From assembly GCA_017412765.1 (NCBI GenBank), contig JAFPWN010000014.1:1-50917 (forward strand): a DNA stretch of 50,917 nt, given 5' to 3'. Position 1 is the stretch's first letter, and every line of letters starts with the position of its first letter. Under the pieces are notes generated by a model. That model saw only the letters and a list, made by a program, of their open reading frames with translations. It was not told the origin of the DNA and did not search any database. The stretch is from Oscillospiraceae bacterium (GTDB lineage Bacteria > Bacillota > Clostridia > Oscillospirales > Oscillospiraceae). Shown one piece after another: positions 6,322-37,828 of the stretch. The translations under genes were made by a program, and so were the position numbers.

Positions 6322-8523
6322 ATGGCTGAAACTGAGAAAAAGGGCTTTGGCCTGCACCTGACGATCGCCATAATTGCCGGAGCGTTCGCGCTCATCGGCC
6401 TTGTACTGTTCCTTCTTGGCTTTTCTACTAATTACTACACCTTCGGCGGCATGAACTCCGTGCTGATAACGGTGCTGATCGTTCTTGCGATGGCTGCGAT
6501 AGCCGCCTCCGCAGCTCTTATCCACAAGTTCCCCGATAAGATATGGGCAAAGCTTATGCCTCTTGCCGCAGTCGGACTTCTCGCGGCGGCGAGTATGCTC
6601 ATCGTCGGCGACAGGGTAGAGGGCATCGGCAACTGCATCATCACCGATTACGACTCCGGTCACGGCGGCGAGCAGGCGATCTATATGTCGCTCGTCGGCG
6701 CAGTAAGCCTTATTGTTTCAATAATATATATAATTATCGGACTTTTTCACGAGAATATCACCCAGCCTGCTCCCAGAGCAAAAACCCTCGGCTTCTCGAT
6801 CGCGGGCGGCGTGCTTGCCGTTTCAGCGATTGTTGCGACTCTCGGACTTGTCGGTGTTAATCTTACCGGCGGCACGAGCATCGGCCCCGGCGGCGTTTCT
6901 TCAGGCGAGATGGCGAGCGGCACCTATACCGTCAGCTTCAACGGCAACAGCGGCAACGTCGATCTCGTTCAGGATACTCAGTTCATACCGGCAAACGTCA
7001 AGGGACTGCTGAATGCCGACACCCGCCTCTTCCTCGACTTTACGCTCACGCTCGACGGAGCGGGACGTTACACGCTCTTTGCGGATAATTACGTTGTCGA
7101 GGGCGGCAAACGCGCCGAGATCGGCGACGATACGGGTCTCGGACTTATCCTCACGACCACTGCGGAGGGTACCTACGTCGATAACGGCGACGGAACGGTT
7201 ACGACCGCGCCCGCGACCCACGTCGTCGCGGTCATGGAGACCGATACCTACTCCTCGCAGATGAAATCGCCTGCCAAGATGAAGGTCGGCGACAACGACG
7301 CGGACGGCACCTACGATTCCAATGACTATCCCGAGGTTCTCGAGCTCGTTCCAGAGACTGTCTGGACTCTCTCCGGCAGTGAGATCATCGGCTATTCCGT
7401 ACCGAGCGATGAGGAGCCTGCCGACGAGCAGCCCGCTGAGGATACCCCGGCAGCTCCCGCGCCCGAGGGCGTGACCATCGTATCCGACGACGGCGGCACG
7501 GCGATAACCTTCAACCCGGACGGAACCTTCTCATTCGACTTTGACGCATATTCCGTCCACGAGGAGGGCACCTATACATACGAGGAAGGCGTTTTGACTG
7601 TAACTAATCCGAACGGCGACAGCTTCACAGCCGAGGGTGACCCGATGGCGCTCCACTACGTCACCGCAGTCTCCGAGCAGCTTGCGGGCGATTACACTAT
7701 TCCCGCTGCGGCGTTTGACTTCGCTCCCGCTTCTGAGGGCGGCTTCGACGCGTTCACGGTTGTATCCGACGACGGCGGCACGAAGCTGACTGTCAACCCC
7801 GACGGCACATACGTCTTTGCGTTTGAGTCATACGGCATAGAGGACCCCGGCACTTGGAGCACAATTGACGGCAAGACTGTATTCGTCAACGCGAACGGAC
7901 TTGAAATGCCTCTCGAGGGCGGCAAGCTTCATTACGTCTCCGGCGTATCCGAACAGCTCACCGGCGACTTCACGTTTGAAATGCCCGCCTCCGGCGGCGC
8001 GGCAAGCAGCTTCGACGCGTTCACGGTAGTATCTGATGACGGCGGCACGAAGCTGACTGTCAACCCCGACGGCACATACGTCTTTGCGTTTGAGTCATAC
8101 GGCATAGAGGACCCCGGAACATGGAGCACTGTTGACGGCAAGACTGTATTCGTCAACGCGAACGGACTTGAAATGGCACTCGAGGGCGGCAAGCTGCATT
8201 ACGTCTCCGGCGTATCCGAACAGCTCACGGGCGACTTCACGTTTGAAATGCCCGCCTCCGGCGGCGCGGCGGCGGAGCCGTACACCGTACCCTCCGATGA
8301 CGGCGCGACCACTATCACGTTTAACGGCGACGGAACGTATATGTTCGAATTCGCCTCCTACGGAGTGCAGGACGCCGGAACATACGCCTTTGACGGCGCG
8401 ACTCTCACTGTCATAAACTCCACAGGTCTTGAAATGACAACTTCAGACGGAAAGCTGCACTATATCTCCGGTGTTTCCGAACAGCTAACGGGCGATTTTA
8501 CACTTGACCTCTCGAAGCTTTAA
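6322..8523 (+). CDS. Membrane protein with an extracellular four-repeat array
   Basis: Family not recognised. Five predicted membrane helices lie in the first 185 residues. An exported region of about 150 aa (GTYTVSFNGNSGN...) follows, then an acidic Pro-rich linker near 355-380, then four repeats of about 85-90 aa to the end. Each repeat runs SDDG(G/A)T...(N/G)PDGT(Y/F).F.F..Y.(V/I)...GT..., then ..LHY(V/I)(S/T).VSEQL.GD(F/Y)T, and looks beta-rich. Repeats 2 and 3 are nearly identical in DNA. The start follows AAAGGAGG, 2 bases after the GH3 stop. Sitting in the glycosidase operon it could be a surface glycan-binding or sensing protein, but that is inference from position only. Confidence 0.75.
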   Translation: MAETEKKGFGLHLTIAIIAGAFALIGLVLFLLGFSTNYYTFGGMNSVLITVLIVLAMAAIAASAALIHKFPDKIWAKLMPLAAVGLLAAASMLIVGDRVEGIGNCIITDYDSGHGGEQAIYMSLVGAVSLIVSIIYIIIGLFHENITQPAPRAKTLGFSIAGGVLAVSAIVATLGLVGVNLTGGTSIGPGGVSSGEMASGTYTVSFNGNSGNVDLVQDTQFIPANVKGLLNADTRLFLDFTLTLDGAGRYTLFADNYVVEGGKRAEIGDDTGLGLILTTTAEGTYVDNGDGTVTTAPATHVVAVMETDTYSSQMKSPAKMKVGDNDADGTYDSNDYPEVLELVPETVWTLSGSEIIGYSVPSDEEPADEQPAEDTPAAPAPEGVTIVSDDGGTAITFNPDGTFSFDFDAYSVHEEGTYTYEEGVLTVTNPNGDSFTAEGDPMALHYVTAVSEQLAGDYTIPAAAFDFAPASEGGFDAFTVVSDDGGTKLTVNPDGTYVFAFESYGIEDPGTWSTIDGKTVFVNANGLEMPLEGGKLHYVSGVSEQLTGDFTFEMPASGGAASSFDAFTVVSDDGGTKLTVNPDGTYVFAFESYGIEDPGTWSTVDGKTVFVNANGLEMALEGGKLHYVSGVSEQLTGDFTFEMPASGGAAAEPYTVPSDDGATTITFNGDGTYMFEFASYGVQDAGTYAFDGATLTVINSTGLEMTTSDGKLHYISGVSEQLTGDFTLDLSKL
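7744..8277 (+). repeat. Tandem 267-bp intragenic repeat
   Basis: Two near-identical units (7744-8010 and 8011-8277), each 89 codons, encode repeats 2 and 3 of the membrane protein. The very high nucleotide identity, including third codon positions, points to recent duplication or ongoing homogenisation. More diverged units lie on each side. Confidence 0.85.
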
Positions 8524-8532
8524 GAATAGAAT

Positions 8533-8559
8533 AAGGGCGCGGCGATAAACCGCGCCCTT
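8533..8559 (+). terminator. Terminator-like hairpin, left copy of a 27-bp direct repeat
   Basis: Arms AAGGGCGCGG and CCGCGCCCTT around CGATAAA, 9 bases after the membrane-protein stop codon. The identical 27 bp recurs at 8723-8749 on the other side of the 165-bp element. The T-tract expected after the stem is replaced here by the element. Confidence 0.7.
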
Positions 8560-8723
8560 CAGACTGTAGACAAAAAGAAAAAGCGTTGGATATAGGAGGC
8601 GGGGTTCTGTGAAGGGGCCGGCCAAGAGGCCCCTTCACGTCGCATAAACCGCCCGCAGGCGTCATATTTTGCACTCTGAGAGTGCAAAATATGTTCGATG
8701 CGGAGACTTTGTCGACGCATTGA
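8559..8723 (+). repeat. 165-bp dispersed structured repeat, copy A
   Basis: It begins TCAGACTGTAGACAAA and ends TTTGTCGACGCATTGA, whose reverse complement matches the start at 11 of 16 positions, so the ends are imperfect terminal inverted repeats. Inside are two strong hairpins: 8609-8638 (arms GTGAAGGGGCC / GGCCCCTTCAC) and 8663-8693 (14-bp arms CATATTTTGCACTC / GAGTGCAAAATATG, loop TGA). A second copy of the same length lies inverted at 37640-37804. There is no coding capacity. It looks like a MITE or a large REP-type element. Confidence 0.85.
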
Positions 8724-8749
8724 AGGGCGCGGCGATAAACCGCGCCCTT
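8723..8749 (+). terminator. Terminator-like hairpin, right copy of the 27-bp direct repeat
   Basis: Identical to 8533-8559 and followed by TTTTC. It lies only 18 bases before the GH5 start codon, so it may attenuate transcription entering the GH5-GH30 pair. Confidence 0.65.
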
Positions 8750-35035: not shown

Positions 35036-35065
35036 ATCGGAGGGAGAAAAACCCTCCGATTTTTC
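35036..35065 (+). terminator. Terminator after the DUF4153-like gene
   Basis: Arms ATCGGAGGG and CCCTCCGAT around AGAAAAA, followed by TTTTTC. Confidence 0.88.
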
Positions 35066-37616: not shown

Positions 37617-37640
37617 AGGGCGGCTCGTATGAGCCGCCCT
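37617..37640 (+). terminator. Terminator-like hairpin abutting repeat copy B (left)
   Basis: Arms AGGGCGGCTC and GAGCCGCCCT around GTAT, 4 bases after the preceding stop. Its last base is the first base of the 165-bp element. Confidence 0.7.
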
Positions 37641-37804
37641 CAATGCGTCGACAAAGTCTCCGCATCGAACATATTTTGCGCTCTCTGAGCGCAAAATATG
37701 ACGCCTGCGGGCGGGTGATGCGACGTGAAGTGGCCTCTCGGCCGGCCCCTTCACAGAACCCCGCCACCTTTATCCTACGCTGTTCTTCTTTGTCTACAGT
37801 CTGA
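37640..37804 (-). repeat. 165-bp dispersed structured repeat, copy B
   Basis: An inverted second copy of 8559-8723, the same length to the base and roughly 85-90 percent identical by eye. Hairpins: 37670-37700 (14-bp arms CATATTTTGCGCTC / GAGCGCAAAATATG) and 37725-37754 (one mismatch). Relative to copy A, an A-T pair in the first stem has become G-C with both partners changed. It lies between the convergent ends of the SPFH operon and dinB. Confidence 0.85.
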
Positions 37805-37828
37805 GCCCGGCTCGCAATGAGCCGGGCT
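37804..37828 (-). terminator. Terminator-like hairpin abutting repeat copy B (right)
   Basis: Arms AGCCCGGCTC and GAGCCGGGCT around GCAAT, directly after the dinB stop codon on the minus strand. Confidence 0.7.

What the first reader, a model, noticed from the sequence alone, without database searches (positions are those of the whole stretch)
8559..8723. 165-bp structured repeat in two inverted copies with a compensatory base-pair change
8559-8723 and 37640-37804 are the same length to the base, opposite in orientation and about 85-90 percent identical by eye. Both carry imperfect terminal inverted repeats (TCA...GT(A/C)GACAAA) and two strong hairpins. In the 14-bp stem, GCACTC/GAGTGC in copy A is GCGCTC/GAGCGC in copy B: both partners changed and pairing kept. 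That argues for selection on structure, not just shared descent. It could be a MITE, a REP-type element or an RNA-acting 3' module. No family name comes to mind.
Basis: seen in the sequence. Interest (0 to 1): 0.75.

Follow-up and report, generated by a model that had tools for sequence, protein, structure and literature searches.

The report
Hairpin-duplicating mini-transposon (IS1182-type MITE)
The two repeats are copies of a small mobile DNA element that lands at the foot of hairpins, often gene-ending ones, and leaves a copy of the hairpin on both sides, which may let it spread without removing the stop signals it lands in.

Summary
Window 8560-8722 (+) and 37641-37803 (-) are two ~163-nt copies of a dispersed family: at least 40 full or nearly full-length places in this genome, also found in 2 of 59 relatives searched. 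It is a MITE. Its left end, CAGACTGTAGACAAA, equals the end of an IS1182-type element whose broken copies lie in the same genome. Of 76 copies with usable flanks from three genomes, 72 have a stem-loop at one or both feet. In 55 of these the stem-loop is present on both sides as a 20-34 bp repeat (in 6 of the 55 the inverted register fits better), and repeat length equals hairpin length in 46 of 55. Copy A's site in two relatives holds one 27-bp hairpin. Three of four copies without hairpin have 7-8 bp repeats. Other elements of the genus, and IS1182 elements in five families of the order, behave alike. I infer a DDE transposase joining at both 5' feet of an extruded stem-loop. The 'compensatory' pair is weak evidence for an RNA role. 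Known relative IS1272 removes the hairpin instead; IS1182 MITEs are known.

The parts
8560..8722 (+). MITE copy A, core 163-nt element
   Evidence: ends CAGACTGTAGACAAA ... TTTGTCGACGCATTG
8533..8559 (.). left copy of the 27-bp target hairpin
   Evidence: exact 27-bp repeat; -19.1 kcal/mol; terminator-like on the - strand
8723..8749 (.). right copy of the 27-bp target hairpin, followed by TTC; the hairpin is single at the empty site in G026 and G028
   Evidence: not flagged as terminator-like by the scan
8560..8574 (+). left terminal inverted repeat, identical over 15 nt to ends of the IS1182-type element of the same genome
8708..8722 (-). right terminal inverted repeat (CAATGCGTCGACAAA on the - strand), 10 of 15 positions as in that IS end
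8609..8638 (+). internal hairpin 1 (GTGAAGGGGCC...GGCCCCTTCAC)
8663..8693 (+). internal hairpin 2 (CATATTTTGCACTCT/AGAGTGCAAAATATG) with the compensatory pair
37641..37803 (-). MITE copy B, core element, reverse orientation
37617..37640 (-). hairpin on one side of copy B (AGGGCGGCTCATACGAGCCGCCCT), terminator-like
37804..37828 (-). similar-looking but diverged hairpin on the other side of copy B (AGCCCGGCTCATTGCGAGCCGGGCT); scores as no duplication in my tests
35036..35061 (.). empty site in this genome: one hairpin at the place where G026 and G028 carry the MITE between two hairpin copies

Best explanation
The repeat is a MITE, a short non-coding transposon moved in trans by an IS1182-family DDE transposase. 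Shown: one end is identical to the ends of an IS1182-type element of the same genome; the family is dispersed; most copies sit at the foot of a stem-loop, often with terminator-like A- and T-rich outer sides; the stem-loop is single at the empty sites found and double at most occupied ones; repeat length follows hairpin length; three of four non-hairpin copies have 7-8 bp repeats. Inferred: mobilisation in trans; recognition of an extruded stem-loop (cruciform or hairpin); joining of the transposon's 3' ends to the 5' foot of the hairpin on each strand, points side by side at the junction but 20-34 bp apart in linear sequence, so that repair copies the whole hairpin. Also inferred: because the outer sides stay intact, termination survives in both directions and such insertions are tolerated.
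For: Dispersed family; 3 of 60 genomes, own included, hold it. Flanks: of 79 copies, a stem of net score 6 or more on at least one side in 72 and on both in 55, against 17 of 438 positions moved 30-55 nt outward; direct or inverted repeat in 58 of 79, against 5 of 1051 mismatched flank pairs. With the 163-nt borders and 76 non-degenerate copies: hairpin in 72, on both sides in 60, hairpin-length repeat in 55 (20-34 bp; equal to hairpin length in 46 of 55, r = 0.96); 3 of 4 copies without hairpin have exact 7-8 bp repeats. After merging nine groups of shared sites: 68 sites, 64 with hairpin, 49 with the repeat. Empty sites: copy A in G026 and G028, one 27-bp hairpin; window 35036-35061 versus G026/G028 and G000 L002 versus G026 L105; G028 L152 versus G026 L108. 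Partner: six IS ends at contig breaks of G000, five with CAGACTGTAGACAAA and one with one change, carrying transposase pieces; the hairpins at three left ends recur at three right ends. An intact relative in the genus (L058, 529 aa): 436 bits to NCBIfam IS1182 (cut-off 270), Pfam DDE_Tnp_1, DDE_Tnp_1_6 and DUF772, and its own 25-bp hairpin doubled.
Against: No transposition was observed. The IS of G000 is assembled only as ends, so mobilisation in trans is inferred; the MITE's right end agrees with the IS end at 10 of 15 positions. Of the 55 repeats, six fit better inverted (L022_1663, L023, L035, L103 clearly; L041, L050 slightly), and two further copies (L040, L082) are clearly inverted; simple gap repair does not predict this. 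At L023 the orthologous occupied site in G028 (L129) has direct copies, which suggests loop flipping after insertion. Seventeen of 72 hairpin copies, copy B among them, miss the direct-repeat threshold; two of these (L016, L083) have 7- and 6-bp exact repeats and only a one-sided stem, so they may belong to the non-hairpin class. About a third of hairpins lack the A- or T-rich outer side. No PDB chain matched the L058 transposase, so cruciform recognition is untested.
Confidence: 0.85

Rival explanations
1. The element is kept by selection as a structured RNA module (3' UTR stabiliser, sRNA or regulator) and its mobility is secondary.
For: Two strong hairpins, z -5.4 and -3.9; one pair with repeated changes on both sides; median distance to the neighbouring predicted ORFs 36 and 33 nt, 37 of 46 contexts tandem or convergent, so many copies are probably transcribed.
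Against: Only one pair of 52 varies substantially on both sides, with GT and AC states; several other consensus pairs are often broken (44 of 82 paired at 46:83, 64 of 82 at 42:91). Sites differ between related genomes and empty sites exist. No Rfam match.
Confidence: 0.08
2. Hairpin-MITE-hairpin is inherited as one unit, or the hairpins were copied by later recombination, and the element does not target hairpins.
For: Flanking hairpins occur at most copies.
Against: Loci have different hairpins: mismatched flank pairs match in only 5 of 1051 comparisons; empty orthologous sites carry the same hairpin once; other MITEs and IS1182 elements show the same pattern.
Confidence: 0.03
3. Same element, other mechanism: the transposase binds the two arms of a palindrome in linear double-stranded DNA and cuts 20-34 bp apart, without extrusion.
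For: The targets are near-perfect inverted repeats, so a symmetric dimer could be guided by them; nothing here shows extrusion.
Against: No arm sequence shared by the targets was apparent on reading the flanks; the repeat length takes every value from 20 to 34 bp, which a dimer bound to one face of linear DNA would not easily allow (inference).
Confidence: 0.2
4. A REP-type palindromic repeat moved by a RAYT (HUH, Y1) transposase.
For: Internal palindromes, mostly intergenic position.
Against: End identity with a DDE IS1182-type element; target repeats, which single-strand HUH transposition does not make (recalled). No RAYT search was run.
Confidence: 0.02

Closest known systems
IS1272 / TnSha1 (IS1182 family, Staphylococcus): PMC5678879 (outline, abstract and passages), PMC4923244 (passages)
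   Same: Family of the partner transposase; targets stem-loops, several of them terminators, without sequence consensus; ends of about 16 bp.
   Different: There the stem-loop is removed wholly or partly and no target duplication is made. Here it is kept and doubled. PMC5678879 draws whole stem-loop duplication only as an alternative pathway (its 'b') in the model figure legend.
MITEs attributed to ISMac2 (IS1182 family) in Methanosarcina acetivorans: PMC3852290 (passages, one table)
   Same: MITEs of 160 and 169 bp with 25-26 bp inverted repeats, assigned to an IS1182 partner: IS1182 MITEs are therefore already known.
   Different: The table lists direct repeats of 4 and 0 bp; the words hairpin and terminator do not occur in that paper's main text. 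No sequence comparison was made here.
Other IS1182-family IS: ISPse1 (PMC3281130, table passage), ISCaa15 (PMC3196728, table passage)
   Same: IS1182 family, 1653 and 1434 bp, 16- and 18-bp ends.
   Different: Listed with 4-bp direct repeats. That ISfinder gives the family direct repeats of about 0-60 bp is recalled and unchecked; the review sought was not held.
Bacterial MITEs in general, including RUP, BOX, SPRITE (review PMC10969869, passages)
   Same: Short, non-coding, multicopy, structured, inverted ends.
   Different: The term IS1182 does not occur in the review's main text; no sequence comparison was made here.

Membership tests
MITE | short non-coding unit with terminal inverted repeats | tested here: met
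   163-nt core; imperfect 15-nt ends
MITE | dispersed multicopy family | tested here: met
   at least 40 full or nearly full-length places
MITE | target-site duplication and empty sites | tested here: met
MITE | ends shared with an autonomous element | tested here: met
   left end identical over 15 nt to IS ends in G000; right end 10 of 15
MITE | transposition in trans observed | not testable with these tools
   needs an assay
IS1182 family (partner element) | transposase matches the family model | tested here: met
   L058 protein of a same-genus genome: 436 bits to NF033551, cut-off 270
IS1182 family (partner element) | the copy in the window's own genome matches the family model | tested here: inconclusive
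   only terminal pieces assembled; they match the L058 protein (C-terminal 63-64% over about 61 aa, N-terminal 68% over 28 aa)
IS1182 family (partner element) | length about 1.3-1.95 kb, single ORF (recalled) | tested here: met
   L058 and L068: 1648 bp, one long ORF of transposase sequence
IS1272-type stem-loop replacement | target stem-loop lost on insertion, no duplication | tested here: not met
   stem-loop kept and doubled
REP/RAYT | palindromic unit linked to a Y1 transposase | not tested
   no RAYT search was run
Rfam RNA family | score above gathering threshold | tested here: not met
   only 5S rRNA in the window

The most novel reading that the evidence does not exclude
A clade of IS1182 transposases and their MITEs, found in several families of this order, reads DNA structure instead of sequence: it joins at both 5' feet of an extruded stem-loop, so the hairpin sets the length of the target duplication, and it falls back to a 7-8 bp stagger on ordinary DNA. 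Because the structure is copied whole, terminators survive on both strands, a built-in way of inserting without harm.
Probability: 0.55. Interest if true: 0.7.

Novelty: new variant of a known kind. Interest (0 to 1): 0.5.

Why it matters
DDE elements are usually described by a fixed duplication length. Here the length follows the target's own fold, which makes structure-guided target choice directly testable: lengthen, shorten or break the stem and measure the duplication. It gives dozens of natural examples of the outcome that the IS1272 paper drew only as an alternative pathway, and it suggests why such elements can reach high copy number in compact genomes. For annotators, two identical hairpins about 160-340 bp apart with CAG...CTG-like ends inside are a signature of such elements in this group.

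Tried and rejected
RNA-module reading: tested by consensus fold and pair counts; one strongly varying pair. Known RNA family: none in the window but 5S. First guess for the partner, the PF13751 fragment in G000 (L051): no matching end within the locus; the partner was then found through same-genus loci and at contig breaks of G000. Inverted hairpin pairs as proof of the cut: not used, since one orthologous occupied site has direct copies. Viral contigs: 0 matches to an exact 28-nt internal pattern. Literature searches. In their listings and in the passages I opened (PMC5678879, PMC4923244, PMC3281130, PMC3196728, PMC10969869, PMC9782665, PMC3852290) I saw no report of whole-hairpin duplication by an IS1182 element; I did see IS1182 MITEs reported (PMC3852290). 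The library holds open-licence papers only, the listings were capped, and most listed papers were not opened.

Dropped before counts: 14 partial copies at contig or locus ends (leaving 86); copies with under 50 nt of flank (leaving 79); three degenerate copies, L092, L097 and L109 (leaving 76). Only 40 of 83 first-look candidates in G000 were scored and I fetched part of the remaining end matches. The 34 loci of other same-genus genomes were picked by me from 96 end matches, without a displaced-position control. The order-wide scan was given 39 loci; it reports the best-scoring ends only.

Full report
What was checked. The two stretches exist as described: 8559-8723 and 37640-37804, opposite strands, 165 nt, 91.5% identical. 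The inner parts fold better than all 200 shuffles (z -5.4 and -3.9). The A-T versus G-C pair is real. The outermost base on each side belongs to the target; the mobile unit is about 163 nt (8560-8722 and 37641-37803).

Copy number and distribution. In the window's genome (G000, 2.28 Mb, 74 contigs) 40 of 83 first-look candidates were scored, and 40 places of full or nearly full length at 93-100% identity were listed. The degenerate end TCANNNNGTMGACAAA occurs 85 times in G000 against 0 for the reversed pattern. Of 60 genomes searched by DNA similarity (own included), 3 hold the element: G000, G026, G028, all of one genus; diverged relatives would be missed by that search. An exact 28-nt internal pattern finds 46 stretches in the collection of named genomes, all titled Oscillospiraceae metagenome assemblies from goat reticulum or roe deer rumen; contig lengths such as 131357 and 92714 tie these to G026 and G028. 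No viral contig has the pattern.

The target is a stem-loop. Copy A lies between two identical 27-bp hairpins. Over 79 copies of three genomes with at least 50 nt of flank on both sides, 72 have a stem of net score 6 or more at one foot or the other and 55 at both, against 17 of 438 positions displaced 30-55 nt outward. A direct or inverted repeat of the flank is found in 58 of 79, against 5 of 1051 mismatched flank pairs. With the 163-nt borders and 76 non-degenerate copies (39 G000, 19 G026, 18 G028), 72 have a hairpin, 60 on both sides, and 55 of the 72 carry the hairpin on both sides as a 20-34 bp repeat. The repeat length equals the hairpin length in 46 of 55 (r = 0.96). In 49 of the 55 the direct register fits at least as well as the inverted one. 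Of the four copies without hairpin, three have an exact 7-8 bp repeat. Two copies counted as hairpin copies on a one-sided stem (L016, L083) have exact repeats of 7 and 6 bp and may be of that kind too. Merging nine groups of shared sites leaves 68 sites, 64 with hairpin and 49 with the repeat.

Empty sites. In G026 and G028 the copy A locus has one 27-bp hairpin and no element. The reverse case lies inside this window: at 35036-35061 one hairpin stands where G026 and G028 carry the element between two copies. G000 L002 versus G026 L105 and G028 L152 versus G026 L108 agree. At a non-hairpin site (G000 L002 versus G026 L166) the flanks overlap by only a few bases. At the copy B locus G026 and G028 have one hairpin beside another, unrelated repeat; no copy of this element is seen in the stretches printed.

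The partner. Same-genus loci found with PF13751 include two elements of 1648 bp, L058 and L068, with ends CAGACTGTAGACAAAC and CAGTCTGTCGACAAAC and a perfect hairpin repeat of 25 and 23 bp. The L058 protein (529 aa) scores 436 bits to the IS1182 model NF033551 (cut-off 270) and matches DDE_Tnp_1, DDE_Tnp_1_6 and DUF772. G000 has pieces of a relative at contig breaks: four transposase matches and two further ends read directly (C52, C39). Of the six ends, five have CAGACTGTAGACAAA and one has one change. The hairpins at the three left ends (C52, C41, C51) recur at three right ends (C49, C42, C39), so three copies with doubled hairpins are likely. The pieces were not joined.

Generality. Around end matches in seven other genomes of the genus I fetched 34 stretches, picked from 96 matches; 30 of 34 have a stem of net score 6 or more at a foot, and 13 have both ends resolved with a repeat of 22-33 bp (83-100% identical) at a hairpin, in length classes near 181, 204, 225, 234 and 340 nt. 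In 197 genomes of the order, 17 have an IS1182 match at E up to 1e-60 (22 loci). Of these 22, six (L321, L322, L323, L325, L326, L327; five families) show inverted ends matching at 13-15 of 16 and a hairpin repeat of 27-35 bp; one (L320) has a different hairpin on each side; three (L324, L329, L336) have another end type without hairpin repeat; twelve were not resolved by my scan. Of 17 same-genus loci given to the scan, six (L058, L059, L061, L062, L063, L068) show hairpin repeats of 21-31 bp, one (L069) is the same place as L327, and ten were not resolved.

How it most likely works. Shown: hairpin targeting, hairpin doubling, length matching, end identity on one side, empty sites. Inferred: the stem-loop is recognised extruded and the transposon ends join the two 5' feet. 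This is the alternative 'pathway b' in the model figure legend of the IS1272 paper (PMC5678879, passage). A dimer on linear palindromic DNA is the main rival; the spread of repeat lengths and the lack of an apparent shared arm sequence speak against it without excluding it. The outer sides often keep terminator features: 44 of 69 right hairpins are followed by at least 4 T in 8 nt, and 42 of 63 left hairpins are preceded by at least 4 A in 8 nt. Among 46 copies with context, 20 lie between tandem, 17 between convergent and 6 between divergent predicted ORFs, 2 inside a predicted ORF, 1 without a neighbour. That termination is preserved is inference: the simple scan flagged the left hairpin of copy A on the minus strand only and one hairpin of copy B.

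Results that sit badly. Six copies have a clearly inverted second hairpin (L022_1663, L023, L035, L040, L082, L103), two more slightly. Copy B's hairpins look alike but miss my repeat test. At orthologous sites the element can be in opposite orientation (G028 L044 versus G026 L102; G000 L010 versus G026 L108, where G028 is empty), meaning either repeated use of one hairpin or inversion between palindromic flanks.

The structure claim. Over 82 distinct copies, 4115 of 4262 cells of the consensus fold are standard pairs, but most pairs hardly vary. Only pair 114:124 has substantial two-sided change (GC 52, AT 14, GT 11, AC 5). The two columns change 16 and 17 times by parsimony, yet the mutual information is 15th of 231. 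This fits mild selection for a palindrome, as DNA or RNA, or palindrome correction; it does not show an RNA function.

Place among known things. The same-genus partner belongs to the IS1182 family by model. IS1272 of that family also goes for hairpins but removes them (PMC5678879 and PMC4923244, passages). Two other IS1182 members are listed with 4-bp repeats (PMC3281130, PMC3196728, table passages). MITEs of an IS1182 element, 160 and 169 bp, are listed from Methanosarcina with direct repeats of 4 and 0 bp (PMC3852290, table passage). I recall, unchecked, that ISfinder gives a wide range of repeat lengths for the family. Hence 'new variant of a known kind': a new MITE family whose insertions double the whole target hairpin.

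Noticed in passing
L196 about 2005-2175 (G028), L197 about 1-150 (G026), L254 (G000): A second, unrelated repeat with ends like CTAAYCCCTGATTAAAAGC, beside the single hairpin at the copy B locus of G028 and G026 and seen in G000 as well.
   Followed up: no
L014, around 1501-1664 (G000:C40:25938-26101): One copy lies in a tRNA-like sequence by eye: the doubled hairpin ATACGATTGCAGATCGTAT resembles an anticodon arm and is followed by T-arm-like and acceptor-like sequence. No tRNA search was run on it.
   Followed up: no
L044 (G028) versus L102 (G026): Same hairpin site, element in opposite orientation in the two genomes.
   Followed up: partly
L092 and L245 (G000): Element ends fused to another repeat sharing GTTNCGGCTCGG ... 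TTGGGCAACA; nature unknown.
   Followed up: no
   Followed up: no
window 6322-8523: The ORF upstream of copy A matches itself at a shift of about 260 bp, so it holds internal repeats; Pfam gives Lipocalin_4 and a sub-threshold DUF3048_C.
   Followed up: no
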